Part shown: in pieces, positions 49,113 to 64,000 of the stretch
Position numbering within the stretch: the stretch's first letter is position 1
Layout of the letters: each line of letters opens with the position of its first letter
NCBI RefSeq assembly: GCF_024266585.1
Contig: NZ_CP100647.1
Location: forward strand, 1,965,001 to 2,029,000
DNA: 64,000 nt
Source of the DNA: Xanthomonas sacchari
GTDB taxonomy: Bacteria > Pseudomonadota > Gammaproteobacteria > Xanthomonadales > Xanthomonadaceae
Reading direction: 5' to 3'
Translations under genes and position numbers: made by a program
The notes under the pieces: generated by a model
What the model saw: the letters and a program-made list of their open reading frames with translations, nothing else
What the model was told of the DNA's origin: nothing
The model's database searches: none

Positions 49113-51742
49113 GCCTGCTGCCGGCCGGTGCCGATGCCGGCATGCCCGACGCCGGCGTCGACGACGCCGGCTGGGCGGCGGCGGTCCGGCAACTGCTGGC
49201 GCAGACCGATGCGCGGCTGAGCAAGCGCTTCGACCAGGGCGACGACATCGACCGCCTGCTGGCGCTGCGCGCGCGCGCGCTGGACCAACTGATCCGCCAC
49301 GCCTGGAGCCGTTGCGTGCCGCGCGAGGCCGGGTTGGCCCTGTTCGCGGTCGGCGGCTATGGCCGCGGCGAATTGTTCCCGCGTTCGGACATCGACCTGC
49401 TGGTGTTCGGCGAACTCGATCCCGCGCACGAACCGGCGCTGGCGCGGCTGTTCCCGCTGCTGTGGGATGCCGGCGTGCCGGTCAGCCACGCGGTGCGCTC
49501 GGCCGCGCAGTGCACCGCCGCCTGCGCCGACCAGACCGTGCTGACCGCGCTGATCGAGGCGCGCCCGCTGCAGGCCGACGCCGCCGCCAAGGCGGCGCTG
49601 GCGGCGGCCATCGCGCCGCAGCGGGTGTGGCCGCCGCGCGCATTCTTCATGGCCAAGCGCGAGGAACTGCAGGCCCGCCACCAGCGCTTCGGCGACACCG
49701 CCGACAACCTGGAGCCGGACATCAAGGACGGCCCCGGCGGTTTGCGCGACCTGCACACGCTGGGCTGGATGGCGCTGCGCGCATTCGGCGTGCGCGATCT
49801 GGAGCCGCTGATCGGGCTGGGCCACGTCGGCGGCGACGAGGCCGCCGCGCTGCGCCGCGAGCGCCGCGAACTGGCGCGCTTGCGCTACGGGCTGCACCTG
49901 GTCGCCAATCGCCCGGAAGAGCGGCTGCGCTTCGACTACCAGAAGACCCTGGCGCAGCGCCTGGGCTTCTCCGACGACCCCGAGAGCCTCGGGGTCGAGA
50001 AGATGATGCAGCGCTTCTACCGCAGCGCGGCGATCGTGCGCCGACTCAGCGACCGCCTGCTGCAGCGCTTCGAGGAACAGTTCGACGGCGAGGCGCAGCC
50101 ACAGCCGCTGGATGGCGGCTTCTCGCTGCGCCGCGGCTACCTGGCCGCCGACGCCGAGCGCTGGCCGCAGGCCGACCCGGTGCAGGTGTTCGCGCTGTTC
50201 GCCACCTGGGCCGCGCACGGCGAGATCCGCGGCCTGCACTCGCTGACTGCGCGCGCGCTGGCCGAGGCGCTGCCGCAGCTGCCGGACTACGCCAGCGCCA
50301 GCGCCACCGCGCGCGAGCGCTTCCTGGGCCTGCTGCGCGGCCCGCGCGCGGTGCAGACGTTGACCCGGATGGCGCGGCTGGGCGTGCTCGGGCAGTGGAT
50401 CCCGGCGTTCGCGCAGGTGTCCGGGCGCATGCAGTTCGACCTGTTCCATGTGTACACGGTCGACCAGCACACGCTGATGGTGCTGAAGAACATGGCGGTG
50501 TTCGCCAAGGCGCGCGCCGACGAGCGCTTCTCCATCGCCCATGAAGTCTGGCCGCGGCTGCGCAAGCCGGAACTGCTGCTGCTGGCCGGCCTGTTCCACG
50601 ACATCGCCAAGGGCCGCGGCGGCGACCATTCAGAGCTGGGGGCGGTGGATGCGCGCGCGTTCTGCGCCGCGCATGCGCTCAGCGCCGCCGATACCGACCT
50701 GGTCGCCTGGCTGGTCGAGCAGCACCTGCGCATGTCGGTGACCGCGCAGAAGCAGGACATCGCCGATCCGGAGGTGATCCACCGCTTCGCCAGCCTGGCC
50801 GGCGACCGCGAGCGCCTGGATTACCTGTATCTGCTGACCTGCGCCGACATCGCCGGCACCAGCCCCAAGCTGTGGAACGCGTGGAAGGACCGGCTGCTGG
50901 CCGACCTGTATTTCGCCGCGCGGCGCGCCCTGCGCGAAGGCCTGGAGCATCCGCTGCCGGTGGCCGAGCGCCTGCAGGAGGCGCGCGAGGCCACCCGCGC
51001 GCTGATGCGCATCCAGGGCCACGACGACGTCACCATCGACCGCCAGTTCGCCGGCATGCCGGACGAGAGCTTCCTGCGCTTCCGCCCCGAGCAACTGGCC
51101 TGGCAGGCGACGTCGCTGATGGAGGTGGAACTGGGCGGCACCCTGGTCAAGGTGCGCCCGGTCACCCCCGACGATGCGGCGCTGGAAGTGTTCGTGTACT
51201 CGCCGGACCGCGACGGCCTGTTCGCCGCGATCGTGATGACCCTGGACCGGCTCGGCTACGGCATCCACCGCGCACGCGTGCTCGATGCGCCGCACGAGGC
51301 GATCTTCGACACCTTCGAGGTCATGCCCGCCGATGCCTTCGCCAGCGGCGACCTGGCGCAACTGCAGGCGGCGCTGCGCGAGGCGCTGGCCGGCGACCTG
51401 GCGCGGCTGCGTCCGGCGCGGCGGGTGGTGCCGCGGCAGTTGCGGCATTTCCGCTTCGCCCCGCGCATCGAGTTCCGCGAAAGCCTCGATGGCCGCCGGA
51501 CCCGGCTCAGCCTGGTCGCGCCGGACCGCCCCGGGCTGCTGTCGGACGTGGCCCAGGTGCTGCGCCGGCAGCATTTGCGCGTGCACGATGCGCGCATCGC
51601 CACCTTCGGCGAGCGCGCCGAGGACCAGTTCCACATCACCGACGAGCACAACCTGCCGTTGCCCGACGCCGCCCGCCAGGCGCTGCAGGCCGCGCTGCAG
51701 GCCTGCCTGGACCCCGATTCCCCGCCTGGAGACCCCCGCTGA
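49109..51742 (+). CDS. glnD: Bifunctional PII uridylyltransferase/uridylyl-removing enzyme
   Basis: The nitrogen-status sensor that uridylylates and deuridylylates PII (GlnB/GlnK) in response to glutamine. 877 residues: nucleotidyltransferase motif [20 protein letters not shown] near 75-95, [20 protein letters not shown], the HD domain [20 protein letters not shown], and two C-terminal ACT domains ([20 protein letters not shown] and [20 protein letters not shown]). It starts at a GTG overlapping the map stop (GTGA) and its TGA overlaps the dapD ATG, so the three genes are coupled. Confidence 0.96.
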
Positions 51743-52725
51743 TGGCCACCAAGAAGCCCGCCGCCAAGAAGACCGCCACCAAGACGCCGGCCAAGCCCGC
51801 CGCCGCCAAGCGCGCGGCGCCGACCGCGGCGGCCAAGCCGGCCGCCAAGCCCGCGCCGAAGCCGCCGCGCGCCAAGCCGGTTGCCGTGCCCAGCGCCGAC
51901 GAACTGAAGTTCACCATCGACAGCGCCTTCGAGCGCCGCGCCACCCTGACCCTGGACGAGATCGAGGGATCGACCCGGCCGGTGGTCAACCGCGTCATCG
52001 ATGGCCTGGAGCGCGGCGAGTTCCGCGTCGCCGAGCCGGACGGGCACGGCGGCTGGAAGGTCAACGAGTGGCTGAAGAAGGCGGTGCTGCTGTACTTCCG
52101 GGTCAACGAGATGGCCGTGGTGGAAGCGCAGCCGGCGCCGTTCTGGGACAAGGTGGAAGCGCGCTTCGCCGGCTACCACGAGGCCGAGTTCCGCAAGGCC
52201 GGGGTGCGCGTGGTGCCGGGGGCGGTCGCGCGTCGCGGCAGCTATTTCGGCAAGGACGTGGTGCTGATGCCGAGCTTCACCAACATCGGCGCGTACGTCG
52301 GCGAGGGCACCATGGTCGATACCTGGGCCACGGTCGGTTCCTGCGCGCAGATCGGCAAGCACTGTCACCTGTCCGGCGGCGCCGGCATCGGCGGCGTGCT
52401 CGAGCCGCTGCAGGCCAGCCCCACCATCATCGAAGACCACTGCTTCATCGGCGCGCGCTCGGAGGTGGTGGAGGGCGTGGTGGTTGGCCACCACAGCGTG
52501 ATCGGCATGGGCGTGTTTCTGGGTCAGAGCACGCGCATCTACAACCGCGCCACCGGCGAGATCTCCTACGGCTACGTGCCGCCGTACAGCGTGGTGGTGT
52601 CCGGGCAGTTGCCGTCCAAGGACGGCTCGCACTCGCTGTACTGCGCGGTGATCGTCAAGCAGGTCGACGCCAAGACCCGCAGCAAGACCAGCGTCAACGA
52701 TCTGCTGCGCGGGCTGGCCGACTGA
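51742..52725 (+). CDS. dapD: Tetrahydrodipicolinate N-succinyltransferase with basic N-terminal tail
   Basis: Lysine/diaminopimelate pathway enzyme that succinylates tetrahydrodipicolinate. 327 residues, about 50 more than usual. The extra N-terminus is a lysine/alanine/proline-rich tail ([20 protein letters not shown] and [13 protein letters not shown]), resembling histone-H1-like bacterial tails. The core starts at about 51 ([20 protein letters not shown]) and contains [15 protein letters not shown], then the hexapeptide helix [20 protein letters not shown] and [13 protein letters not shown]. Its start overlaps the glnD stop. The tail may be disordered or nucleic-acid binding; its role is unknown. 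Confidence 0.95.
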
Positions 52726-52730
52726 GCATG

Positions 52731-52757
52731 GCGAGACCGGGCCAGGCCCGGTCTCGC
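52731..52757 (+). terminator. Strong hairpin just after dapD
   Basis: GCGAGACCGGGC-CAG-GCCCGGTCTCGC: a perfect 12-base stem with a 3-base loop, starting 5 bases after the dapD stop. It lacks a U-run, so it may be a rho-aided terminator or an mRNA-end stabiliser. Confidence 0.65.
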
Positions 52758-53103
52758 GCTGGCACGCCGCTCCCCGTCGACGTCGTGGTCGGCCGGAGCG
52801 GCAAGCACGCGGCAGCTTCCGTCTGTCGCCGGCATGCAGCCTTTTGCGAATCCCGTACCGCCGTCTTGTCTGCGGGCGGGCAGGACAGCCCATGGTGGTG
52901 GTCGCGCGGGCGCGAGGCGGTCGCCTGGTCCGCGCAGATTCGCAATCTCGCGCCGGTGGCAGGGCGCATACCCGACGTACATCGGTGGCCGGATACGCTG
53001 CCACACACGGGTTCAGGCGCTGCCTCGGCGGTGCGTATCGGACCCGACGATGCCCGGCGCAGACCGTCGTCGGGGGTTGCCGCTGCGCCGACAGGAGACA
53101 CCG
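52758..53103. other. Intergenic region upstream of the lipoprotein gene
   Basis: About 346 bases. Short open frames run through it on both strands but none has a domain or start context. It should contain the promoter of the lipoprotein gene, which I cannot define, and a CCCGACGATG...CGTCGTCGG near-palindrome (53042-53078). Confidence 0.5.
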
Positions 53104-53883
53104 ATGCGAAAGATCACATGGGCTTTCTGGATGACGGCAGCGTTGGCGCTGTCCGGATGCGGCCGTGAGGGCGCGCCGGCGCCGGCGGCGCTCAAGGATG
53201 CCGACACGCACGCGGCGGCGGCCGCTGCGCCGGCCTCCGCGTCGACGGTGCCAGCGGCGTCCGCACCACCGCAGGCAGCGACCGCGACGGCGGATGCGAG
53301 CGCGGCAAGCGAGCCGCTGTCCTGCGCCGCCGAGATCGGCGCCGACGCCGCGGCGGCGCGCGTGGCCACCTGCCGCGCGGTGTCGCCGGCCACCCATCCG
53401 CCCTGCAATGCCGCCAACAGCTGCGCCATGATCGACAACGAGATCGCCCGCAGCTGCGCGCTGCTCGGCCGCGACGCGGCGGCCGCCGCCGGTTGCGGCC
53501 CGGCCGCCGACAGCCCGCAGGCGGCGGCCGCGGTGGTGCGGCGCTACTACGCGGCGATCAATGCGCGCGACTACGCCACGGCCTGGCAGCAGTGGGGCGA
53601 GGACGGGCGCCCGGGGCAGTCCTACGCTGCGTTCAAGGCCGGCTTCGCCCGGACCCGCGCGGTGCAGGTGACGATCGGCGCGCTGGGCGCCGGCGAAGGT
53701 GCCGCCGGCTCGGTGTACCAGCCCGTGCCGGTCACCGTGGAGGCGACGCTGGCCGACGGCACGCGGCAACGCTTCCGCGGCGACGACGTCCTGCGCCGCG
53801 TCAACGGCGTGGACGGCGCCGCGGCCGCGCAGTTGCGCTGGCGGATCGACTCGGCGCAGCTCAAGGAAATGCCGGCGCAATGA
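53104..53883 (+). CDS. Lipoprotein with NTF2-like C-terminal region
   Basis: A 259-residue lipoprotein: signal MTAALALSGC with lipobox LSGC, a long Ala/Ser/Thr linker (about 25-80), then a cysteine-containing segment (CAAEIGADAAAARVATCRAV, CNAANSCAMIDNEIARSCAL) and a C-terminal domain from about residue 130 with VVRRYYAAINARDYATAWQQ, which reads like a SnoaL/NTF2-like fold. AGGAG lies 8 bases before the ATG. Function unknown. It interrupts the dap-asn cluster between dapD and the ArsC-like gene. Confidence 0.75.
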   Translation: MRKITWAFWMTAALALSGCGREGAPAPAALKDADTHAAAAAAPASASTVPAASAPPQAATATADASAASEPLSCAAEIGADAAAARVATCRAVSPATHPPCNAANSCAMIDNEIARSCALLGRDAAAAAGCGPAADSPQAAAAVVRRYYAAINARDYATAWQQWGEDGRPGQSYAAFKAGFARTRAVQVTIGALGAGEGAAGSVYQPVPVTVEATLADGTRQRFRGDDVLRRVNGVDGAAAAQLRWRIDSAQLKEMPAQ

Positions 53884-53982
53884 GGAGCGGTCCGGCCGAT
53901 CGCGGTGTCCTGCTGCGCAGGGGACCCGACGGCGCGCGCGCCGGGTAAGATCACGCGCGCCACGCTGCCACGCGGCGTGCCG

Positions 53983-54046
53983 ACCCTCACCCCAACCCCT
54001 CTCCCCCACGGGGACTCCCTACGGTCGCCGGTGGAAGAGGGGCTTC
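53983..54046. repeat. CCCCTCTCCC/GGGAGAGGGG-type extragenic repeat
   Basis: CTCACCCCAACCCCTCTCCC followed by CACGGGG and, after 20 bases, GGTGGAAGAGGGGCTT. The outer arms form an imperfect stem. This is the common extragenic element of xanthomonad and related genomes. It lies just upstream of the ArsC-like gene and could terminate lipoprotein transcription. Confidence 0.55.
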
Positions 54047-54068
54047 CTCGCTTGAAGGGATGGTTTCG

Positions 54069-54425
54069 ATGACGACGTTGTACGGATTGAAGAACTGCGA
54101 CACCTGCAAGAAAGCGACAAAGTGGCTGGACCGCTTCGGCGTGGCCTATACCTTCGTCGATTACCGCGAGCACAAGCCGACGCCGGACACCCTGCTGGAC
54201 TGGGCCGGCCAGGCCGGCGGCTTCGATGCGCTGGTCAACAAGTCCTCGACCACCTGGCGGCAACTGCCCGACAACAAGAAGACCCCCGGCTCCGATGCCG
54301 AGTGGAAGCTGCTGCTGCGCGAGTATCCGCAGCTGATCCGGCGGCCGGTGGTGGTGACCGACGACGGCCGGCTCAGCCAGGGCTTTTCCGACAACGGCTT
54401 CAAGCAGCGCTTCGGGGTGGCGTGA
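54069..54425 (+). CDS. ArsC/Spx-family protein (YffB-like)
   Basis: A 118-residue thioredoxin-fold protein. It opens TLYGLKNCDTCKKATKWLDR with a CDTC motif and contains GQAGGFDALVNKSSTTWRQL and PQLIRRPVVVTDDGRLSQGF, the ArsC-like layout. The YffB family is linked to dapE and is often annotated as arsenate reductase-related, but arsenate activity is not established. I prefer the ATG at 54069, with GAAGGGA at good spacing; the ATG at 54060 is too close to it. The stop overlaps the GNAT start (GTGA). Confidence 0.85.
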   Translation: MTTLYGLKNCDTCKKATKWLDRFGVAYTFVDYREHKPTPDTLLDWAGQAGGFDALVNKSSTTWRQLPDNKKTPGSDAEWKLLLREYPQLIRRPVVVTDDGRLSQGFSDNGFKQRFGVA

Positions 54426-54880
54426 CCATCCGCCCGTACCGGGCCGAGGACTGGGCGCGCCTGTGCGCCATCCACGACGCCGCGCGCCTGGAGGAACTGC
54501 AGGCGGCGGGGCTGGCCGATGCGTTCCTGCCGCTGCCGATCGCGGCCGCGCGCGAAGGCCTGTTCGATTACCGCGTGCAGGTCGCCGAATGGCAGGGACA
54601 GGTGCTCGGCTTCGTCGCCTACGATGGCGAGGAACTGGCCTGGCTGTACGTGGATCCGTCCGCACGCCGGCGCGGCGTCGGCCAGGCGCTGGTGGCCGCG
54701 GTGCAGGAGGCCAGCCCGGCGGGCCTGACGCTGGAATTGCTGGAGGGCAATGCCGCGGCGCTGGCGTTCTACCGCGCCTGTGGCTTCGTCGAAACCGGCA
54801 TGCAGCATGGGCGCATGCCAGGCAACGAGGCGTTCGCGGTGCGCGTGCAGTGCATGCGCTGGCCGGCGCGCGCGGGCTGA
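54422..54880 (+). CDS. GNAT-family N-acetyltransferase
   Basis: A 152-residue acyltransferase starting at a GTG (VTIRPYRAEDWARLCAIHDA) that overlaps the ArsC-like stop. The acetyl-CoA motif is LYVDPSARRRGVGQALVAAV, followed by LELLEGNAAALAFYRACGFV, the typical motif B. The substrate is unknown. Coupled translation with the ArsC-like gene suggests a shared role. Confidence 0.85.
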   Translation: MTIRPYRAEDWARLCAIHDAARLEELQAAGLADAFLPLPIAAAREGLFDYRVQVAEWQGQVLGFVAYDGEELAWLYVDPSARRRGVGQALVAAVQEASPAGLTLELLEGNAAALAFYRACGFVETGMQHGRMPGNEAFAVRVQCMRWPARAG

Positions 54881-55069
54881 GCGCGGTCCGCGGCCCGCCT
54901 GCGCTCGGCCAGGCGGGCAGGCAGGGTGCTCGGCATCGCTATCCCGCCCTCGTACACTGCGGTTCCCGCTGCGCCGTCAGCGTGCACGTGGCGACCGCTC
55001 GCGCGGTCTGCAGGCCACGGCGCAGCGTCCGCAGCATTGCGTCTTCCGCCTTCCAAACGGTGTCCCTGC

Positions 55070-56200
55070 ATGTCCGATGTCCTTGAACTCGCCTGCGACC
55101 TGATCGCCCGCCCGTCGGTCACCCCCGACGATGCCGGTTGCCAGGAGCTGATCGCGCAGCGGCTGGCGCGCGCCGGTTTCGCCATCGAGCGGCTACGCTG
55201 CGGCCAGGTCGACAATCTCTGGGCCACCCACCGCGGCGGCGACGGCCCGGTGCTGGCCCTGCTCGGCCATACCGACGTGGTGCCGCCGGGGCCGCGCGAA
55301 GCCTGGGCCAGCGATCCGTTCGCGCCGCAGGTTCGCGACGGCGTGCTGTACGGGCGCGGCGCGGCCGACATGAAGGGCAGCGTGGCCGCCTTCGTGGTCG
55401 CCGCCGAGCGGTTCGTGGCGGCGCATCCGCAGCACCCTGGCACGCTGGCGGTGTTGCTGACCAGCGACGAGGAGGGCGATGCGATCGATGGCGTGCGCCA
55501 CGTGGCGCGCATGTTCGCCGAGCGCGGCGAGCGCATCGACTGGTGCCTCACCGGCGAACCGTCGTCCACCGAACGGCTCGGCGACCTGCTGCGGGTCGGC
55601 CGTCGCGGCAGCCTTTCCGGCGCGCTGCGCGTGCGCGGCGTGCAGGGCCATGTGGCCTATCCGCACAAGGCGCGCAACCCGATCCACCTGGCCGCGCCGG
55701 CGCTGGCCGAGCTGGTCGCGCGGCACTGGGACGACGGTTACGAAAGCTTCCCGCCGACCAGCCTGCAGATCTCCAACGTGCACGCCGGCACCGGCGCCAA
55801 CAACGTGATCCCCGGCGAACTGCAGGTCGCCTTCAACCTGCGCTACACCCCGCACTGGGATGCGCCGCGGCTGGAGGCGGAGATCGCCGCGCTGTTCGAT
55901 CGTCATGGCCTGGACTACGAGCTGCGCTGGCACCGCAGCGGCGAGCCGTTCTACACCCCGGAAGGCACGCTGCGGCGGGTGGCGCGCGAGGTGCTGGGCG
56001 AGGTCGCCGGTGCGCCGCCGGAGGAGAGCACCGGCGGCGGCACCTCCGATGCGCGTTTCATCGCCCCGCTGGGCGCGCAATGCATCGAGGTCGGCCCGGT
56101 CAACGCCAGCATCCACCAGGTCGACGAACATGTGCGCGTGGCCGACCTGGAGGCGCTGCCGGACCTGTACCTGCGCCTGATCGAACGGTTGCTGCGGTAA
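55070..56200 (+). CDS. dapE: Succinyl-diaminopimelate desuccinylase
   Basis: M20 zinc peptidase-fold enzyme of the lysine/meso-DAP pathway, 376 residues. Metal ligands lie in [19 protein letters not shown] (His), [15 protein letters not shown] (bridging Asp) and [13 protein letters not shown] (Glu-Glu pair). The dimerisation-domain His lies in [20 protein letters not shown], and [14 protein letters not shown] is the C-terminal family signature. It pairs functionally with dapD. 189 bases separate it from the GNAT gene. Confidence 0.96.
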
Positions 56201-56238
56201 CAGTTGCGCCGGCCCGCGCGCCGGGTTACGTTCGCTCC

Positions 56239-56334
56239 ATGCACTCGCTGTCCGCCCTCCGCTCGACCACCGCCAACGGCCGCAATCATGCGCTGGCGAA
56301 TAATCGTGCGCGGCCGATGCGGGTCTGCGACTAG
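56239..56334 (+). CDS. Candidate asnB leader peptide with four Asn codons
   Basis: A 31-codon frame beginning MHSLSALRSTTANGRN and ending in TAG. Asn stands at codons 13, 16, 21 and 22 (AAC, AAT, AAT, AAT). Three are AAT, which should be the less-used codon in this GC-rich genome, and two are adjacent. It ends 33 bases before the terminator stem and its last codons overlap the duplicated arm. No Shine-Dalgarno is visible. A weak TTGCGC-17-TACGTT upstream would start transcription close to the ATG, so it could be leaderless. Too short for routine gene finding; supported mainly by its position and Asn content. Confidence 0.7.
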   Translation: MHSLSALRSTTANGRNHALANNRARPMRVCD

Positions 56335-56397
56335 GCGCTACCAGAACCACCACGCCCAGCCACCAGAAAACCCGCATCGGCCGATGCGGGTTTTTTT
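56312..56397 (+). promoter_or_regulatory. asnB transcription attenuator
   Basis: A terminator lies at 56367-56397: AACCCGCATCGG directly followed by CCGATGCGGG and a run of seven T. The sequence GGCCGATGCGGGT, the 3' arm of this hairpin (56379-56391), occurs again at 56312-56324, so the upstream copy can pair with the 5' arm (56370-56380) instead and prevent termination. The duplicated arm begins 8 bases after the tandem Asn codons and ends 8 bases before the leader stop. A ribosome stalled for lack of Asn-tRNA would leave most of it free, while one at the stop codon would cover it. Confidence 0.85.
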
Positions 56398-56451
56398 GTG
56401 TCTGCGTGCGTGCCCCTTCGCCATCACCACCCCACGATCAGGAGCTTTCCC

Positions 56452-58143
56452 ATGTGTTCGATCTTCGGCATCTTCGGCCTGCAACCGGGCGACGACCTGC
56501 AGGCCCTGCGACGGCAGGCGCTGGACTGCTCGCAGCGGCAGCGCCACCGCGGCCCGGACTGGAGCGGCGTGTATGTCGACGACGGCGCGATCCTGGTGCA
56601 CGAGCGCCTGGCCATCGTCGATCCGGCCGGCGGTTCGCAGCCGCTGCTGTCGGACGATGGGCAACTGGCGCTGGCGGTCAACGGCGAGATCTACAACCAC
56701 CGCGAACTGAAGAAGCAACTCGCCCAGCCCTACGCCTTCCAGACCGGCTCGGACTGCGAGGTGATCAACGCGCTGTACCGCGAAACCACGCCGGACGCGC
56801 TGCTGAACCGGCTCAACGGCATCTTCGCCTTCGCGCTGTGGGACAAGGCCGCCGGCCGCGTGCTGATCGCGCGCGATCCGATGGGCGTGTGCCCGCTGTA
56901 CTGGGGCCATGACACGCAGGGCCGGCTGCGCGTGGCCTCGGAGATGAAATCGCTGGCCGACAGCTGCGCCGACGTCGCCCAGTTCCCGCCCGGCCATTAC
57001 TACGACAGCGCCAGCGGCGAGCTCGTGCAGTACTACCGCAAGCCATGGCGCGACTACGCGGCGGTGCAGGGCGTGGAGGTGAGCAAGCAGGAACTGCGCG
57101 AGGCCTTCGAGCGCGCCGTGCATCGCCAACTGATGACCGACGTGCCGTACGGCGTGCTGCTCTCCGGCGGGCTGGATTCGTCGCTGGTGGCGGCGGTGGC
57201 GGCGCGCTTCGCGCGCAAGCGCATCGAGGAGAACGACGAGGCCGAGGCCTGGTGGCCGCGCCTGCACTCGTTCGCGATCGGCCTGAAGGGCTCGCCGGAC
57301 CTGGCCGCCGCGGCGATCGCGGCCGAGGCGCTGGGCACCGTGCACCACGGTTTCGAATACACCTTCGAGGAAGGCCTGGACGCGCTGCCGGAGGTGATTC
57401 GGCACATCGAGACCTACGACGTCACCACCATCCGCGCCTCCACGCCGATGTTCCTGCTGGCGCGGCGGATCAAGGCGATGGGGGTGAAGATGGTGCTGTC
57501 CGGCGAAGGCAGCGACGAGATCTTCGGCGGCTACCTGTACTTCCACAAGGCGCCGAACGCGCGCGAATTCCACGAGGAGCTGATCCGCAAGCTCGACGCC
57601 CTCTACAACTACGATTGCCTGCGCGCCAACAAGTCGATGATGGCCTGGGGCGTGGAGCCGCGCGTACCGTTCCTGGACGTGGAGTTCCTGGACGTGGCCA
57701 TGCGCATGGACGCCCAGTACAAGATGGCCGGCACCCGCGCCGACGGCAGCAAGCGCATCGAGAAGGCGGTGCTGCGCGAAGCCTTCGAGGGCTACCTGCC
57801 CGAGTCGATCCTGTGGCGGCAGAAGGAGCAGTTCAGCGATGGCGTCGGCTACGGCTGGATCGACGGACTGAAGGCGCATGCCGAAGCGCAGGTCAGCGAC
57901 CGCGAACTGGCCGCGGCCGACAAGCGCTTCCCGGTGAACCCGCCGCAGACCAAGGAAGCCTATTACTACCGCAGCCTGTTCGAGCGCGCGTTCCCGACCC
58001 CGGCTGCGGCCGAGACCGTGCCCGGCGGCAAGTCGATCGCCTGCTCCTCGCCGGCGGCGATCGCCTGGGACGCCAGCTTCGCGGCGATGGCCGATCCCTC
58101 CGGCCGCGCGGTGGCCGGGGTGCACGCGCAAGCGTTGGCATGA
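56452..58143 (+). CDS. asnB: Asparagine synthetase (glutamine-hydrolysing)
   Basis: Makes asparagine from aspartate, ATP and glutamine amide. 563 residues. The N-terminal class II glutaminase starts CSIFGIFG, with the catalytic Cys at position 2 after Met removal. RHRGPDWSG and VNGEIYNHRELKKQL are glutaminase signatures. The synthetase domain has the ATP motif GVLLSGGLDSSLVAAVAARF, then MVLSGEGSDEIFGGYLYFHK and EPRVPFLDVEFLDVAMRMDA. AGGAG lies 8 bases before the ATG. It is preceded by the Asn leader and attenuator, and closes the dap-asn aspartate-family cluster. Confidence 0.96.
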   Translation: MCSIFGIFGLQPGDDLQALRRQALDCSQRQRHRGPDWSGVYVDDGAILVHERLAIVDPAGGSQPLLSDDGQLALAVNGEIYNHRELKKQLAQPYAFQTGSDCEVINALYRETTPDALLNRLNGIFAFALWDKAAGRVLIARDPMGVCPLYWGHDTQGRLRVASEMKSLADSCADVAQFPPGHYYDSASGELVQYYRKPWRDYAAVQGVEVSKQELREAFERAVHRQLMTDVPYGVLLSGGLDSSLVAAVAARFARKRIEENDEAEAWWPRLHSFAIGLKGSPDLAAAAIAAEALGTVHHGFEYTFEEGLDALPEVIRHIETYDVTTIRASTPMFLLARRIKAMGVKMVLSGEGSDEIFGGYLYFHKAPNAREFHEELIRKLDALYNYDCLRANKSMMAWGVEPRVPFLDVEFLDVAMRMDAQYKMAGTRADGSKRIEKAVLREAFEGYLPESILWRQKEQFSDGVGYGWIDGLKAHAEAQVSDRELAAADKRFPVNPPQTKEAYYYRSLFERAFPTPAAAETVPGGKSIACSSPAAIAWDASFAAMADPSGRAVAGVHAQALA

Positions 58144-58389
58144 CCGGCGCCAGCCTGCTGGCGATCGCCGGGATGCTGACGCTGGGGAGATCAGTCCCGG
58201 CGCGAGCTTCTAGCCGGTGGCGCGGCTGGCCGCCGGGGGTTCGCGCGCGGCCTGATTCGCGCTGGTGGCCGGGGTGCTGTCCACCCGGCGCGCGGCGCTT
58301 GTGGATGCGCGCGCGGCGGTCGCTGGACCGGTTCAGTGCGGTGCTGATGAGCGGGCTGGGTCTGCGTCTGCTGTAGCGGCCCGCACGGC

Positions 58390-59457
58390 TCATCCCGCGC
58401 TCGTCGACGGGATCGCGGCATCGCCGGCGGCGGGTGCCGGTGCGGTGGCGGGCGCCGTGTCGAGCCGGATCGCGCTCTTGCCGCTGCCCTTGGCCGCGTA
58501 CAGCGCGCGGTCGGCGCGCGCGAGCAGGTCGGACACCTCGCCACCTGGCGGCAGCGACGCCAGGCCGGCACTGAATGCGAAGCGCACGCCGACCACCTCC
58601 AAACCGCGGACCCGCTGCAGCAGCCGCTGCAGCAGTTCGTTGGCCTTGGCCTGCGACAGGCCTTCGAACAGCAGGCCGAATTCCTCGCCGCCGAGGCGGC
58701 CGACACGGCAGCGCGGATCCAGCCGCAGCAGTTCCGTCGCCAGCGCCTGCAGCACCGCATCGCCGACATGATGGCCATGCCGGTCGTTGATCTGCTTGAA
58801 GTCATCGATGTCCAGCATGGCGAACTGCAGCAGTTGCGGCGTGCTCGCCGCGGTCTGCAGGTCGGCCATCAGCGCGCGCCGGTTGGGAATGCCGGTCAGC
58901 GCATCGGTCTCGGCAAGACGCCGGTAACCTTCCTTGAGCGCATGCGTGGTGCGCATGGCGGTGACGAAGGTACGGTTGAGGGTGAAGCCGATCATGGTCA
59001 CCGCCGCCACCAGGATGACCAGCAGTGGCAGGTCGGCGGACGAGGTCACCAGTGCGTCCTGCCAGCCGAGCAGGATCGTCCAGGTGGCGGCCATTGCCAG
59101 CAGATAGTCGCGGGAGTAGCTGAACACGATGCTCTGTCCAAGGCACAGGGTCACCGCGACCGGCAGCGTCCAGTCCAGACTGGCGGCGCCCATGTCGTGC
59201 AACTCGAGCCGGAGCGCTGCGCAGGTTGCGAGCATGAACAGGAAGCCGAACAGCCGCCACTGCCAGAAGCGCTTGGTCAGGCTCATGATCGCGCTGGTGC
59301 CGAGCAGGGCGGCGAAGACAAGCGCGTAGCGCAGGTCCAATGGCGCTTGCAGCCACGGGTTGCACAGCAACGATAATGGCCACGCCAGCATCACCAGGCC
59401 TTGCAGCGCCAGGATCGGCCGGCGAAGCACGCGGCGGATGTGGTTTTGGTAGGTCAT
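58390..59457 (-). CDS. Membrane-bound GGDEF protein, probable diguanylate cyclase
   Basis: A 355-residue protein with five or six transmembrane helices in the first ~165 residues (LALQGLVMLAWPLSLLC, LVFAALLGTSAIMS, LPVAVTLCLGQSIVF, LPLLVILVAAVTMIGF). A GGDEF domain follows from about 190 (ETDALTGIPNRRALMADL). The active loop is GGEEF at 256-260, and unlike the other GGDEF protein here there is no RxxD inhibitory site upstream (the position reads DPRC). I chose the ATG at 59457, with AAGGGA at 8 bases. It makes c-di-GMP, presumably in response to a membrane signal. It converges on asnB; nothing else was found in the 246-base gap. Confidence 0.88.
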   Translation of the reverse strand: MTYQNHIRRVLRRPILALQGLVMLAWPLSLLCNPWLQAPLDLRYALVFAALLGTSAIMSLTKRFWQWRLFGFLFMLATCAALRLELHDMGAASLDWTLPVAVTLCLGQSIVFSYSRDYLLAMAATWTILLGWQDALVTSSADLPLLVILVAAVTMIGFTLNRTFVTAMRTTHALKEGYRRLAETDALTGIPNRRALMADLQTAASTPQLLQFAMLDIDDFKQINDRHGHHVGDAVLQALATELLRLDPRCRVGRLGGEEFGLLFEGLSQAKANELLQRLLQRVRGLEVVGVRFAFSAGLASLPPGGEVSDLLARADRALYAAKGSGKSAIRLDTAPATAPAPAAGDAAIPSTSAG

Positions 59458-59744
59458 CTGCGTTCCCTTGGAGCGCTGCAGCGTCTGCGTGGCACGGCCG
59501 GTGCGGTGGCCCAGCGCGATATCCGTCGGACGCTGGGGCGTCGTCACCGATTAGCGGCCGCCGCAGGTGGAGCTTTAGCGCGTCCGACAGGGGGGCGGGT
59601 GGTCGGCGGCGCCGCGCGCAGGACCCGGATGCATCGCTACGCCCCGGGGCGGAAGCGTGCCGCGGGGCCGTGCAGGGTTGGCCTGGCGTCCATCGCCGCG
59701 CGTCCGGGATGGCGCGGCGGCCGGACGCGCGCAGTGCCGTGCGC

Positions 59745-60791
59745 TTACTCGAAGCGCACGCAGTGGCCGTAGCGTTCGGGCTGGATGTCGATGCCCGAGG
59801 CATCGGCCTGGTTGTTCTTGCGCCACAGGTTGGGGCGGAAGTCCTTGCCGGTGCAGTTGGCCGCGCTGTCCACGCCGATGGTGTAGGTGTAGGGATTGCC
59901 GCGGAAGGTGTTGTTCTCGAAGGTGTTGTCCTGGCTCATGCTGTTGTCCCAGCACAGGATCTGCGGCGTGCGCTGGCGGATCGAGCAGGTCAGGTAGATC
60001 CCGGCGCCCTTGTTGTCGATGAACTGGTTGCCGGCGAACAGGTTGCGCCGCGCGTCGGCCAGGTACACGCCCTGGCTGCCGTTGCGCTCCAGGCGGTTGT
60101 CGCGGATCTCGCTGTCTTCCAGGTGCTCGGTGGTGATGCCGGCGGCGACGTTGTCGTGGATCACGTTGTCGATCAGCTTGACCTTGGCGGTGCGGTTGAA
60201 CGACACCCCGTCCCAGATCGCGCCGGAGACGTCGTTGTGCGCGATCAGCAGGTCGCGGCTGTCGAATTCGCTGAGCAGGCAGGCGCTGCGGCACTTGCTC
60301 ACCCGCAGGTGGGTCAGCTGGATGTTCTGGCCGTTGCGCACCACCACCAGGCTGTTGCTCAGGTACGGACGCTCGGGCATGAACTCCTTGTCGATGGTGC
60401 CGCCGATGATCTGCAACTGCTCCACGCGCACGTCGCGGATCGGCCGTATCGGGCGCTCGTTCTGGTAGTCGCCGATGACGATGGTGGGTTGCTGCACGTG
60501 GTCGCGCATGCGCAGCACCGTGCTGTCGCCCTGGCCGCGCAGGCGCAGGCCGTCGCGCTGGATCGACAGCAGCTTGCCGACCTGGAATTCGCCGGCGCTC
60601 AGGCACACGGTGGCGGGCTTGCCGTCGTTGGGGACACGGTCGATCGCGGCCTGCAGATCGTCGCCGGGTTCGGCGCGTACGCTGCAGTCGGAAGCGGCAG
60701 CGGGTGCGTTGGCGGCCGGCGTGGCACAGGCGGAGAACGACACGGCCGCGGCGAGCGGCAGCAACAGGGTGAGCAGGGGAGGGCGCTTCAT
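59745..60791 (-). CDS. Right-handed beta-helix lipoprotein
   Basis: A 348-residue lipoprotein with signal LLTLLLPLAAAVSFSAC (lipobox FSAC). The mature part opens with VRAEPGDDLQAAIDRVPNDG, as in many parallel beta-helix polysaccharide-acting proteins. It continues through repeated turns rich in Asn and Ile, such as NDVSGAIWDGVSFNRTAKVK and NVAAGITTEHLEDSEIRDNR, typical PbH1 repeats. Cysteine pairs (CRSAC, CSIRQRTPQILC) suggest disulfides. It could be a lyase, an epimerase or a binding protein; no catalytic residues can be assigned. 88 bases separate it from the next upstream gene. Confidence 0.8.
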   Translation of the reverse strand: MKRPPLLTLLLPLAAAVSFSACATPAANAPAAASDCSVRAEPGDDLQAAIDRVPNDGKPATVCLSAGEFQVGKLLSIQRDGLRLRGQGDSTVLRMRDHVQQPTIVIGDYQNERPIRPIRDVRVEQLQIIGGTIDKEFMPERPYLSNSLVVVRNGQNIQLTHLRVSKCRSACLLSEFDSRDLLIAHNDVSGAIWDGVSFNRTAKVKLIDNVIHDNVAAGITTEHLEDSEIRDNRLERNGSQGVYLADARRNLFAGNQFIDNKGAGIYLTCSIRQRTPQILCWDNSMSQDNTFENNTFRGNPYTYTIGVDSAANCTGKDFRPNLWRKNNQADASGIDIQPERYGHCVRFE

Positions 60792-60879
60792 CGGTAGGCG
60801 GACTCGGCTGTGGGGGAGGGGGAGGCGGAGCCGGCCGGCGCAGCATGGAGACAGGCGCCGGCACGGGACCGGGACCAGG

Positions 60880-63255
60880 TCATTGTGGTGCGGGCGGCCT
60901 TAATGTCAGCGTGTACCGGGTCGGGCCGGGCAGGAACTTTGTGGCGCGCCCCTGCACCCAGTCGGCGTGACCGGCGCCCCAGAACGGCGACAGCGGGTGG
61001 CCGCTCTGGCCGCCGGGCATGTGCACGATGCCGTCGGCCTCGTGGCCCGGCGCCACCACCATGCGTTCGGAGGCGCCGAAGGCCGGGCGCTGCACCCGCG
61101 GCATGTCGTCGTCGCCGGGCAGCGGCGTGGCCGGCATGCACAGCCAGCCGCGCAGCGGCCCCGGCAGGCCCTGCGCCAGCGGATGGCAGATCGCCGCGCG
61201 GTTTTCCAGGCCCCAGCGGCGTGTGTCCAGCGGGCCATCGGCCTGCAGTCGTGTGCGCACCTCGGCGGCGGCGTCTTCCAGCAGCGCCTGCCAGCTGCCG
61301 TAGCGACGCGGCAACAGGTGCAGCGGCTGTTGCTGCAGCAGCGGCCAGGCCACGCCTTCCAGTTGCGGCAGCGGCGGTGGCGCGGTGTCGTCGCCGGATC
61401 CGGCGCGGGCCGGTGCGATCAGTCCGTCGCGGATCCGGGTCAGCACCGCCAGACGCCACGCCCGCACCAGGGTGTAGCTCACCGAGCCGGTGCTGGCGCG
61501 GCCTTCCCAATGCGCGGCTGCCTGCGCCACCGCGTGCAGCGCTGGCGTGGCCGCGCCGGCGTCGCGTTGCTGCAGCAGCGCCCACCAGCGCTGCAGGAAC
61601 AGCGCGCGGTCATCGAGCTGGATCGCCAGCAACTGCTGTTCGTTCAAGCGCGGGTGCAGGCGCAGGTCGTCGCGGATCTGCCGCGCGCGCGCACCCAGCG
61701 CGTAGCCGCCGTCGCCGATCGGCGCCAGCTCTGCGCCGCCGACCACGCGGGCGTTGGCGGTCCACAGTTGCCCGTCGGCAGGATCGATGCGCTGCGGCGA
61801 TCGGGTGGTGGACAGCGGCCACGGCGCGCAGCGGACATCCGCCGGCACCGTCGCGCGCACGTCGTGCATCACCGCGTCGGCCGCGCAATGCGGGCCGCGC
61901 AGCGGCAGCGGGCCGAGCACGCGCCAGCCGATGTGGCCGTCGCGGTCGGCCAACACCAGGTTCTGCGCCGGCGTGGCGATGTCTTGCGCGCGGGCGAAGG
62001 CGCTGCCCAGCGTGTCGGTGCGGGCGAAGTCGGCCAGGCCCAGGTTCAGCGCGCCCGGCAACTGCGCGGCCCAGCGCAGCGCCAGCGCGCTGCCGTCCGC
62101 CTCGTGCTGCAGGATCGGGCCGTAGGCGGTGTCCTCCACCTGCAGCACGGTGTCGGCGGCGCCAGAGACCCGGATCCGTTCGCGGTGCACGCTCACCGGC
62201 GTGCAGCCGGGCTGCGGCGTCGCCGCGCAGGGCGTGAGCCGGTACCAGTCGGCGGTATCGGCATAGCTGTTGGTGAAGCCCCAGGCGATGTGACCGTTGC
62301 TGCCGACGATCACCGCCGGCAGGCCCGGCAGCGAGAAGCCGGACACGTCCACGCGGCCGCCGGGGGCCTGCGCATTGGCATAGCGCAGGCGCACCCGGAA
62401 CCACAGGCTGGGCGCGCGCAGCGCCAGGTGCATGTCGTTGGCGACGATGGCGCGGCCGTCGGCGGTGCGGCTGCCGGCGATGGCCCAGTTGTTGCTGCCG
62501 GGCGCGGTAGTGGCCACCGCGTCCGCAGCGGCGCGCGCGGGCGCGTCCGCCAGGCGCCGCAGATCGACCTGGGCGGCAGCGGGCAGCGCCGCGTCGCCGC
62601 GCACGCTGCCGTCCAGGGCCGCGTCCCAACTGCTGCCCTCGTGGCGCAGCAGCGCGTACAGCGGCGCCGGCAAGCGCTGCTGCAGGCGGTACAGCGCCAG
62701 CTTGCGCTCGAGCTGCTGGCCCTGCAGGTCGAAGTACATCGCCTGGCCGGCCAGCGCCGAATCCACCGGCTGCCAGTCGCGCGGCGTGGCGAACAGCAGC
62801 AGATACGGCCACGGCCGCACCCGCAGCGCGTGCAGGCCCTGGTTGACGCCGGCGCTGTAGGCCTGCAGCGTCGCCGCGTGCGTGCCGGCGAAGGCGGCCA
62901 GCTGCGCGCTGCTGCGGGCGCGCAGGCGATGCGCACGCCGCGCCTTGTCCACGCCCAGCGCGTGCGGGCCGACCAGCTCGGACAGTTCGCCGGCGGCGGC
63001 GCGGCGCAGCAGGTCCATTTCGAAGAAGCGCTCCTGCGCATGCACGTAGCCGAGCGCGCGCATCGCATCTGCCTCGTCGGCTGCCTCGATGGTGACCACG
63101 CCCAGCGCGTCGCGCTGGATGCTCACTGGCGCCCGCAGGCCTTGCAGCGGGGCATTGCCGTCGAGCGTGGCCAGGCTGCCGCGCAGCAGCAGCCAGACGC
63201 CCAGCGCCAAGGCCACCGCCAGCAGCAGCGTGCCCAGCAGCACAGGCGTTTCCAT
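60880..63255 (-). CDS. Penicillin acylase-family N-terminal nucleophile hydrolase
   Basis: A 791-residue periplasmic hydrolase. An N-terminal hydrophobic segment (VLLGTLLLAVALALGVWLLL) acts as anchor or signal. The alpha-subunit region has VTIEAADEADAMRALGYVHA and QERFFEMDLLRRAAAGELSE. The autoprocessing site is PGSNNWAIAG with nucleophile Ser254 starting the beta subunit, and NDMHLALRAPSLWFRVRLRY follows. The C-terminal region has GGQSGHPLSPFWGAGHADW. Such enzymes cleave amides including penicillins, cephalosporins or acyl-homoserine lactones; which applies is not readable. The ATG at 63255 avoids 53 residues without homology. Confidence 0.9.
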   Translation of the reverse strand: METPVLLGTLLLAVALALGVWLLLRGSLATLDGNAPLQGLRAPVSIQRDALGVVTIEAADEADAMRALGYVHAQERFFEMDLLRRAAAGELSELVGPHALGVDKARRAHRLRARSSAQLAAFAGTHAATLQAYSAGVNQGLHALRVRPWPYLLLFATPRDWQPVDSALAGQAMYFDLQGQQLERKLALYRLQQRLPAPLYALLRHEGSSWDAALDGSVRGDAALPAAAQVDLRRLADAPARAAADAVATTAPGSNNWAIAGSRTADGRAIVANDMHLALRAPSLWFRVRLRYANAQAPGGRVDVSGFSLPGLPAVIVGSNGHIAWGFTNSYADTADWYRLTPCAATPQPGCTPVSVHRERIRVSGAADTVLQVEDTAYGPILQHEADGSALALRWAAQLPGALNLGLADFARTDTLGSAFARAQDIATPAQNLVLADRDGHIGWRVLGPLPLRGPHCAADAVMHDVRATVPADVRCAPWPLSTTRSPQRIDPADGQLWTANARVVGGAELAPIGDGGYALGARARQIRDDLRLHPRLNEQQLLAIQLDDRALFLQRWWALLQQRDAGAATPALHAVAQAAAHWEGRASTGSVSYTLVRAWRLAVLTRIRDGLIAPARAGSGDDTAPPPLPQLEGVAWPLLQQQPLHLLPRRYGSWQALLEDAAAEVRTRLQADGPLDTRRWGLENRAAICHPLAQGLPGPLRGWLCMPATPLPGDDDMPRVQRPAFGASERMVVAPGHEADGIVHMPGGQSGHPLSPFWGAGHADWVQGRATKFLPGPTRYTLTLRPPAPQ

Positions 63256-63457
63256 CGACCGCGCATCGTCTCTCTCCGGTGGGTACGCTCCCGATTCTAG
63301 ACGCGACTGCGTGTCGTTCCCGTGTGGGTGCGATGCGCTGTGCGCGGGGTCACGCATCGCGCGCCTGCGACTCGGGATGTGAATGATTCCGATTGGAACG
63401 CGGCGCGGCGGCATCGGGCACTATGGCGCCCTCAGTCGACCCCACGGAGCCCGCCCC

Positions 63458-63949
63458 ATGAAGGGACACCCCGACGTTGTGCAATGCCTCAAGGAACTGT
63501 TGCGCGGCGAACTGGCCGCGCGCGACCAGTATTTCATCCACTCGCGGCGTTACGAGGACCAGGGCCTGCTGGCGCTGTACGAACGCATCAACCACGAAAT
63601 GGAAGAGGAAACCGAGCACGCCGATGCGCTGCTGCGACGCATCCTGTTCCTGGAAGGCGACCCGGACATGCGCCCGCATGCGTTCGAGCCCGGGCGCACG
63701 GTCGAGGAGATGCTGGAGAAGGATCTGAAGGTCGAGTACGAAGTGCGCGCCAATCTGGCCGCGGGCATGAAGCTGTGCGAACAGCATGGCGACTACGTCA
63801 GCCGCGACGTGCTGCTGGCGCAGTTGCGCGACACCGAGGAAGACCATGCCTGGTGGCTGGAACAGCAGCTTGGCCTGATCAAGCGCATCGGCATGGCGCT
63901 GTACCAGACCTCGAAGATCGACGGGCACGTGTCCGGCAAGGACGCCTGA
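63458..63949 (+). CDS. ftnA: FtnA-type (heme-free) bacterioferritin-like iron storage protein
   Basis: A 163-residue ferritin-fold subunit starting [14 protein letters not shown]. Ferroxidase ligands are visible: Glu18 in [11 protein letters not shown], Glu51 and His54 in EEETEHAD, Glu94 and the EEDH pair near 127-130. The heme-ligating Met52 of true bacterioferritin is Thr here (EETEHAD), as in the heme-free FtnA of Pseudomonas, so this subunit should not bind heme. I chose the ATG at 63458 because it starts the family sequence; the upstream 25 codons are not conserved. It stores iron as a 24-mer. No bfd gene is in the window. Confidence 0.9.
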
Positions 63950-63955
63950 TCCGCG

Positions 63956-63979
63956 CGCCTCCCGCGCAGGCGGGAGGCG
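63956..63979 (+). terminator. Hairpin after ftnA
   Basis: CGCCTCCCGC-GCAG-GCGGGAGGCG: a perfect 10-base stem 6 bases after the ftnA stop, followed only by a short T-poor stretch, so the terminator is moderate. Confidence 0.7.
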
Positions 63980-64000
63980 TCATCGCTGGGCGGGGGTGTC

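What the first reader, a model, noticed from the sequence alone, without database searches (positions are those of the whole stretch)
56239..56397. Asparagine-codon attenuator controlling asnB
Sequence shows a 31-codon frame with Asn at codons 13, 16, 21 and 22, then a perfect terminator. A 13-base segment 8 bases after the tandem Asn codons is identical to the terminator's 3' arm, so it can pair with the 5' arm as an antiterminator. By the logic known for trp, his and leu attenuators, Asn-tRNA shortage would stall the ribosome and allow asnB transcription. I know of no described ribosome-mediated asparagine attenuator for asnB; if new, this is the strongest regulatory candidate in the window.
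Basis: partly seen in the sequence, partly recalled or inferred. Interest (0 to 1): 0.92.

Follow-up and report, generated by a model that had tools for sequence, protein, structure and literature searches.

The report
Asparagine-sensing leader switch before asnB
A short asparagine-rich reading frame in front of a bacterium's asparagine-making gene appears to let the cell switch that gene on when asparagine runs short; the parts are kept widely among related bacteria, and our paper searches found no earlier report of an asparagine version of this classic switch.

Summary
A 31-codon frame with Asn at codons 13, 16, 21 and 22 is followed by a 14-bp stem with a T-tract; a 13-base copy of the terminator's loop and 3' arm lies inside the end of the frame; asnB follows (NCBIfam equivalog). 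Asn-rich leaders precede asnB in 61 of 61 Xanthomonadales loci, with a terminator after the stop in 59, and the antiterminator co-varies with the terminator arm. In an order-wide sample 89 of 89 asnB genes at least 75% identical to the window's have Asn leader and terminator; of 49 more distant ones one has both and none has the promoter box too. AsnRS is present; GatB and AsnA were not found in the window genome, so Asn-tRNA should report free Asn. Best reading: a classical ribosome-mediated attenuator with a new amino-acid specificity. No experiment was available.

The parts
56204..56209 (+). -35 element TTGCGC of the leader promoter (inferred)
   Evidence: TTGC starts 35, 36 or 37 bases before the leader start in 59 of 61 loci (start chosen with the help of this box)
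56227..56232 (+). -10 element TACGTT, 17-base spacer, ending 6 bases before the ATG (inferred)
   Evidence: conserved block at -16..-5 over 61 loci; weak match to the E. coli consensus, not found by the generic scan
56239..56334 (+). leader peptide ORF, 31 codons plus stop; inferred transcription start at its first base (leaderless)
56275..56304 (+). regulatory Asn codons: 13 (56275), 16 (56284), 21 (56299), 22 (56302)
   Evidence: conserved in the genus
56312..56324 (+). antiterminator segment GGCCGATGCGGGT inside the leader ORF, 7 bases after the tandem Asn codons, ending 10 bases before the end of the stop codon
56365..56378 (+). terminator 5' arm (pairs either with the antiterminator or with the 3' arm)
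56383..56396 (+). terminator 3' arm, running into the T-tract
56391..56397 (+). T-tract of the intrinsic terminator
56440..56444 (+). ribosome binding site AGGAG of asnB
   Evidence: SD-like word before asnB in 54 of 61 loci
56452..58143 (+). asnB, glutamine-hydrolysing asparagine synthetase B, 563 aa
   Evidence: NCBIfam NF006949 equivalog, 880 bits against cut-off 499

Best explanation
It is a ribosome-mediated (leader-peptide) transcription attenuator that sets asnB expression by the supply of charged tRNA-Asn. Transcription starts at or within a base or two of the leader ATG, so a ribosome loads on a leaderless mRNA (inferred from promoter position). When Asn-tRNA is plentiful the ribosome runs to the stop codon, covers the antiterminator segment, and the 14-bp terminator stops transcription before asnB. 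When Asn-tRNA is short the ribosome stalls on the Asn codons; the segment just beyond it stays free, pairs with the terminator's 5' arm before the 3' arm is made, and polymerase reads on into asnB. Shown: the parts, their spacing, their conservation and their pair co-variation. Inferred: translation of the leader, the start site, stalling, and Asn-dependent readthrough.
For: Asn-rich leader in 61 of 61 Xanthomonadales asnB loci (20 genus genomes plus 41 named records); terminator after the leader stop in 59 of 61. In the order sample 89 of 89 asnB genes of at least 75% identity have the Asn frame, 86 with TTGC at -34..-37 of the best frame, and 89 of 89 have a terminator within 60 nt of the stop; of 49 below 75%, 3 reach 3 Asn in 14, 1 of these (L218) has a terminator, 0 have the TTGC box. 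The named and unnamed sets overlap. Asn makes up 18.7% of 132 distinct leader peptides. AAT is 188 of 362 Asn codons in leaders but 69 of 549 in the matching asnB genes. Antiterminator against its own 5' arm scores 23.1, against arms of other sequence classes 17.6, codon-shuffled 14.8 (47 distinct loci). Pairs co-vary, e.g. T-A 8, T-G 3, C-G 22 of 35 at offset 5 and A-T for G-C at offset 2 in L048. Spacing: the antiterminator core ends 8-10 nt before the end of the stop in 50 of 59 loci and starts 9-13 nt after the last Asn codon in 43 of 59, exactly 9 in 23, which suits a ribosome that reaches about 15 nt 3' of the first P-site base (recalled). With the ribosome masked, antiterminator pairing before the 3' arm exists exceeds 0.5 in 55 of 59 loci stalled at the first Asn and in 4 of 59 at the stop; the terminator exceeds 0.5 in 59 of 59 at the stop. 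AsnRS above cut-off in 191 of 200 order genomes; GatB in 0 of 20 genus genomes; AsnA in 0 of 20.
Against: No transcript, ribosome or starvation data. At equilibrium on the full leader the terminator still exceeds 0.5 in 30 of 59 loci stalled at the first Asn and in 48 of 59 at the last, so the switch would have to work by timing. With no ribosome at all the antiterminator is also predicted before the 3' arm is made (54 of 59), so the untranslated state is unclear. In 12 of 47 distinct loci codon shuffles reach the own antiterminator score more than 5% of the time, and 4 of 59 lack the antiterminator core. L057 and L058 keep 9 and 8 Asn but their hairpin has no T-tract. In 9 of 59 loci the last Asn codon is only 3-4 nt from the antiterminator core, so a ribosome stalled there would cover part of it. 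In the genus, variable sites are not biased to third codon positions (15, 13, 14), so selection on the peptide as such is not shown outside the Asn codons. Three closely related asnB genes in records of other phyla (L045, L052, L073) have no leader.
Confidence: 0.92

Rival explanations
1. The frame is a chance ORF over an ordinary dapE terminator or a small RNA's terminator; the duplicated arm is a by-product of the palindrome.
For: The terminator lies about 165 bases after the stop of dapE (TIGR01246 equivalog), and the generic scans found neither promoter nor terminator.
Against: The leader stays with asnB where the upstream gene differs: a dapE relative is found in the fetched stretch of 19 of 20 genus loci but of only 13 of 41 named loci (mostly 2.5 kb upstream held; three of the 28 without it hold under 900 bases), while all 61 have the leader. 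Antiterminator and arm co-vary.
Confidence: 0.03
2. A non-ribosome RNA switch (T-box or other tRNA- or ligand-binding leader) controls asnB through the same terminator.
For: A T-box controls asparagine genes in Clostridium acetobutylicum (Saad 2012, seen only as a reference title in PMC4206432).
Against: No Rfam family reaches its gathering score in window 50000-64000; in the region itself the best amino-acid leaders are Thr_leader 22.8 bits against 55 and Leu_leader 19.8 against 50, both leader-peptide families. The conserved Asn codons and frame would have no role.
Confidence: 0.02
3. Leader translation controls asnB mainly through Rho or through coupling, or the peptide acts in trans, rather than by the intrinsic terminator.
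For: L057 and L058 lack a T-tract; a trpL peptide acts in trans in S. meliloti (PMC7298713, passages).
Against: 59 of 61 loci have a terminator after the leader stop, with a co-varying antiterminator.
Confidence: 0.03

Closest known systems
Leader-peptide attenuators of amino-acid operons (trp, his, leu, ilv, thr, phe)
   Same: leader ORF rich in codons of the product amino acid, antiterminator and terminator sharing one arm, biosynthetic gene downstream
   Different: asparagine codons and asnB; probable leaderless start; no match at gathering score to Rfam families
Sinorhizobium meliloti trpL attenuator
   Same: leader RNA begins at the ATG of the leader peptide (PMC7298713, passages)
   Different: Trp leader of trpE in another class of bacteria
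Mycobacterial poly-Cys leaderless short ORFs (Canestrari 2020: title seen in the references of PMC13236596; paper not held)
   Same: leaderless short ORF whose codons sense the pathway's amino acid
   Different: Cys; PMC13236596 (passages) speaks of translation attenuation for cysteine genes, here an intrinsic terminator is present
Asparagine T-box of Clostridium (Saad 2012, reference title only)
   Same: asparagine genes controlled by Asn-tRNA charging
   Different: uncharged tRNA binds the RNA directly (recalled); no leader peptide

Membership tests
Ribosome-mediated transcription attenuator | leader ORF with clustered codons of the pathway's amino acid | tested here: met
   61 of 61 loci; 89 of 89 in the order sample at 75% identity or more
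Ribosome-mediated transcription attenuator | intrinsic terminator between leader stop and structural gene | tested here: met
   window and 59 of 61 loci, L057 and L058 without T-tract; 89 of 89 in the order sample
Ribosome-mediated transcription attenuator | antiterminator sharing the terminator's 5' arm, placed between Asn codons and stop | tested here: met
   not better than codon shuffles at 5% in 12 of 47 distinct loci
Ribosome-mediated transcription attenuator | downstream gene makes that amino acid | tested here: met
   NF006949 asparagine synthase B
Ribosome-mediated transcription attenuator | 1:2 pause or anti-antiterminator hairpin | tested here: inconclusive
   antiterminator predicted paired upstream above 0.5 in 57 of 59 loci before the 5' arm is made, but no single conserved hairpin was established
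Ribosome-mediated transcription attenuator | amino-acid-dependent readthrough with leader translation | not testable with these tools
   needs an experiment
Leaderless leader mRNA | transcription start at the start codon | tested here: inconclusive
   promoter boxes, C at -1 in 57 of 61, no SD-like word in 52 of 61; start site not measured
T-box / Rfam amino-acid leaders | match at the curated gathering score | tested here: not met

The most novel reading that the evidence does not exclude
Asparagine attenuation by Asn-codon leaders is an unrecognised regulatory class that arose at least twice, in Xanthomonadales (there leaderless) and in Rhodothermota, in lineages that charge tRNA-Asn by AsnRS and lack a full-length GatB.
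Probability: 0.5. Interest if true: 0.72.

Novelty: new member of a known kind. Interest (0 to 1): 0.62.

Why it matters
Classical attenuators have been described for several amino acids; asparagine was not among them in the papers searched. An Asn-specific attenuator kept across the Xanthomonadaceae and Rhodanobacteraceae would explain how bacteria without asnA and GatB set asparagine synthesis. It offers a compact natural Asn-tRNA sensor and makes leaderless initiation in attenuation testable in Gammaproteobacteria. A similar leader in Rhodothermota, if independent, would show repeated invention.

Tried and rejected
Consensus promoter/terminator scan: found nothing; conserved position was used instead. 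Rfam: no family at gathering score. Plasmid search with the leader DNA: no match. Own-genome search with the leader DNA: this place, and its own palindrome on the other strand. AsnB upstream regions of the 35 loci L076-L112 other than L094 and L110 (almost all Alteromonadales, Vibrionales and kin): 14 of 35 have a frame with 3 or more Asn in 14, 1 of 35 (L086) also a terminator within 60 nt, 1 of 35 the TTGC box; I see no attenuator there. Idea that leader presence follows the lack of GatB: in 41 relatives 27 asnB-positive genomes have no GatB match and the 9 with one (8 over cut-off) lack strong asnB; G191 has neither, and four (G476-G479) were not searched for asnB. But in Rhodothermota both leader-bearing and leader-less asnB genomes lack full-length GatB (0 of 12 over cut-off, 11 of 12 a C-terminal partial match), so it does not explain leader presence there. 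The AsnRS model rings weakly in all 14 control genomes, so only its over-cut-off counts are used. Literature: searches looked for an asparagine attenuator, 22 and 53 for leaderless leaders; none showed an asparagine leader-peptide attenuator, but most listed papers were not opened (55 papers, 20 listed). Opened in passages because they hold both words: PMC6685928, PMC11282234, PMC5864092, PMC12421871, all unrelated to Asn attenuation. The standard proteobacterial survey (Vitreschak 2004, recalled) is not held. Corrected on re-check: an earlier count of the 9-nt spacing (now 23 of 59) and the wording on Rhodothermota loci without a leader.

Full report
Observation. The 31-codon frame, its four Asn codons, the terminator and the repeated 13-mer are in the sequence as reported. 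Small corrections: the repeat starts 7 bases after AATAAT, and its second copy is the GGCC loop plus the first 9 bases of the 3' arm. In the 64-kb window, of 435 ATG frames of 15-60 aa (nested starts counted), 9 have 3 or more Asn in 14 residues and one is followed by a strong terminator; only this one has both. The fold of the region alone is not striking (z -2.23).

Neighbours. The frame precedes asnB (NCBIfam NF006949 asparagine synthase B, 880 bits, cut-off 499). The ORF before it is dapE (TIGR01246 equivalog) and ends at 56200; the -35 box starts at 56204.

Conservation in the genus. All 20 genus genomes searched hold the asnB, and all 20 have a 31-codon leader with no indel. Asn13 and Asn16 are Asn in 20 of 20 (codon 16 as AAT 17, AAC 3), codon 17 in 12 of 20, codons 21 and 22 in 19 of 20 each. 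Outside the Asn codons the peptide varies; variable sites by codon position are 15, 13, 14, so there is no general sign of selection on the peptide.

Conservation in the order. Of these, 41 Xanthomonadales loci plus the 20 genus loci all have an Asn-rich leader (61 of 61), on average 5.9 Asn per 34 residues. Three closely related asnB genes in records labelled Holophagales (L045, 84% identity), Rhodococcus (L052, 77%) and Myxococcota (L073, 76%) have no leader; they are not among the 61. I then searched 200 order genomes: 143 have asnB at E 1e-200 or better. Upstream regions of the 137 that lie outside the genus, plus one class genome, were fetched. At 75% identity or more, 89 of 89 have a frame with at least 3 Asn in 14 residues, 86 with TTGC at -34..-37 of the best frame (87 if any qualifying frame is allowed), and 89 of 89 a terminator within 60 nt of the stop. 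Below 75%, 3 of 49 reach 3 Asn, 1 of these (L218) has a terminator and 0 the TTGC box. In the below-75% group one region was short (L244) and one asnB start uncertain (L219). One named locus at 69% (L094) does have the leader. Named and unnamed sets share genomes (for example L120 has the contig length of the record behind L075), so the counts must not be added.

Anatomy. A terminator follows the leader stop in 59 of 61 loci; L057 and L058 have a hairpin without a T-tract. The antiterminator core ends 8-10 nt before the end of the stop codon in 50 of 59 loci; it starts 9 nt after the last Asn codon in 23 and 9-13 nt after it in 43 of 59, but only 3-4 nt after it in 9, which have further Asn codons upstream. 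In the window a ribosome stalled on the tandem Asn codons would just clear it and one at the stop would cover it (footprint size recalled). Pairing of each antiterminator with its own terminator 5' arm scores 23.1, with arms of the same sequence class 23.0, of another class 17.6, and after codon shuffling 14.8 (47 distinct loci); 12 of 47 do not beat their shuffles at 5%. Column by column, the antiterminator follows the arm: offset 5 is T-A 8, T-G 3, C-G 22 of 35; offset 2 is G-C 34 and A-T 1 (L048, where the terminator keeps a G-T pair) (4 of 59 loci had no core and were left out, identical triples counted once).

Upstream gene. A dapE relative lies in the fetched stretch of 19 of 20 genus loci but of 13 of 41 named loci, whereas all have the leader, so the leader goes with asnB and not with dapE (three of the 28 without it hold under 900 upstream bases).

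Model of the switch. I masked a ribosome footprint and computed pairing (59 loci). Before the 3' arm is transcribed, antiterminator pairing exceeds 0.5 in 55 loci when stalled at the first Asn, 46 at the last, 4 at the stop, and 54 with no ribosome. On the full leader the terminator exceeds 0.5 in 59 at the stop, 30 at the first Asn, 48 at the last, 45 with no ribosome. This supports the stop-codon half of the model strongly, and the stalled half as a matter of timing. It leaves open what happens without translation.

Leaderless start. In 59 of 61 loci TTGC starts 35, 36 or 37 bases before the leader start (the start was chosen among in-frame ATG/GTG by this box, so part of the fit is by choice). 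The -10 block ends about 6 bases before it, -1 is C in 57 and +1 is A in 60. SD-like words occur in 9 of 61 before the leader but in 54 of 61 before asnB. The most economical reading is a transcript that begins at the ATG, as known for S. meliloti trpL (PMC7298713, passages). Not measured.

Codon choice. AAT is 188 of 362 leader Asn codons against 69 of 549 in the asnB genes of the same loci; the window's asnB uses AAC 10, AAT 0.

Physiology. AsnRS (TIGR00457) is over cut-off in 191 of 200 order genomes; the window genome's match has E 6.9e-187. GatB (TIGR00133) has no match in any of the 20 genus genomes, while 9 of 41 relatives have one (8 over cut-off); all 9 lack strong asnB. AsnA (TIGR00669) has no match in the 20 genus genomes. 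So Asn-tRNA should depend on free Asn, and AsnB is the only Asn synthetase found, apart from a distant AsnB-like protein of unknown role (37% identity). That is what an Asn attenuator needs.

Second phylum. A Rubrivirga record (L110) showed an Asn-rich frame plus terminator. In 80 genomes of its order, 14 have asnB at E 1e-150. In six (L251-L255, L262; L251 is L110's genome) an NTG-started frame with 3-5 clustered Asn is followed within 60 nt by a terminator; of the other eight none has both (L258 has the Asn frame alone). The end of the frame can pair with the terminator 5' arm, with bulges or mismatches in five of six. The TTGC box of Xanthomonadales is absent in all six and their start codons and promoters are not settled. 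A quick AsnB tree (93 rows, five of these six loci) needs 5 changes of the leader label, at least 4 forced by well supported branches, and does not join the Rhodothermota to the Xanthomonadales; some of these changes come from the three odd records and the method was a quick one. AsnRS is over cut-off in 12 of 12 Rhodothermota genomes tested and full GatB in 0 of 12, leader-bearing or not; AsnA was not tested there.

Literature. Searches of the held open-access library found no asparagine leader-peptide attenuator; most listed papers were not opened. Seen in passages: PMC2965389 (0 mentions of asparagine or asnB), PMC1262725, PMC2659441, PMC1183508 (0 of asparagine), PMC13236596, PMC7298713, PMC4206432, and PMC6685928, PMC11282234, PMC5864092, PMC12421871. 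Many subscription papers, including the main proteobacterial survey, are not held, so priority cannot be claimed with certainty.

Verdict. The element works like the classical trp/his attenuators and meets the sequence-testable core features (the 1:2 hairpin is inconclusive); what is new is the amino acid, the gene, the breadth and the probable leaderless start. I file it as a new member of a known kind.

Noticed in passing
L251-L255, L262 (upstream of asnB): Rhodothermota asnB genes carry a similar Asn-codon leader (several with NANRNP in the peptide, NTG starts) with a terminator; probably a separate origin.
   Followed up: partly
(order genomes): asnB and GatB look mutually exclusive among the relatives: 9 of 9 genomes with a GatB match lack strong asnB, 27 of 27 asnB-positive genomes lack GatB; one genome (G191) has neither.
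   Followed up: partly
L057, L058: Two Lysobacter MAG leaders keep 9 and 8 Asn codons but the hairpin has no T-tract; control may be Rho-dependent or lost.
   Followed up: no
L045, L052, L073: Xanthomonadales-type asnB (76-84% identity) in records labelled Acidobacteriota, Rhodococcus and Myxococcota without the leader: transfer or mis-binned contigs.
   Followed up: no
leaders of 61 loci: AAT is used for about half of the leader Asn codons (188 of 362) but one in eight in asnB itself (69 of 549); may sharpen the response or serve RNA structure.
   Followed up: partly
G000 C1:4576209-4577390: A second, distant AsnB-like protein (37% identity over its first part) elsewhere in the window's genome.
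   Followed up: no
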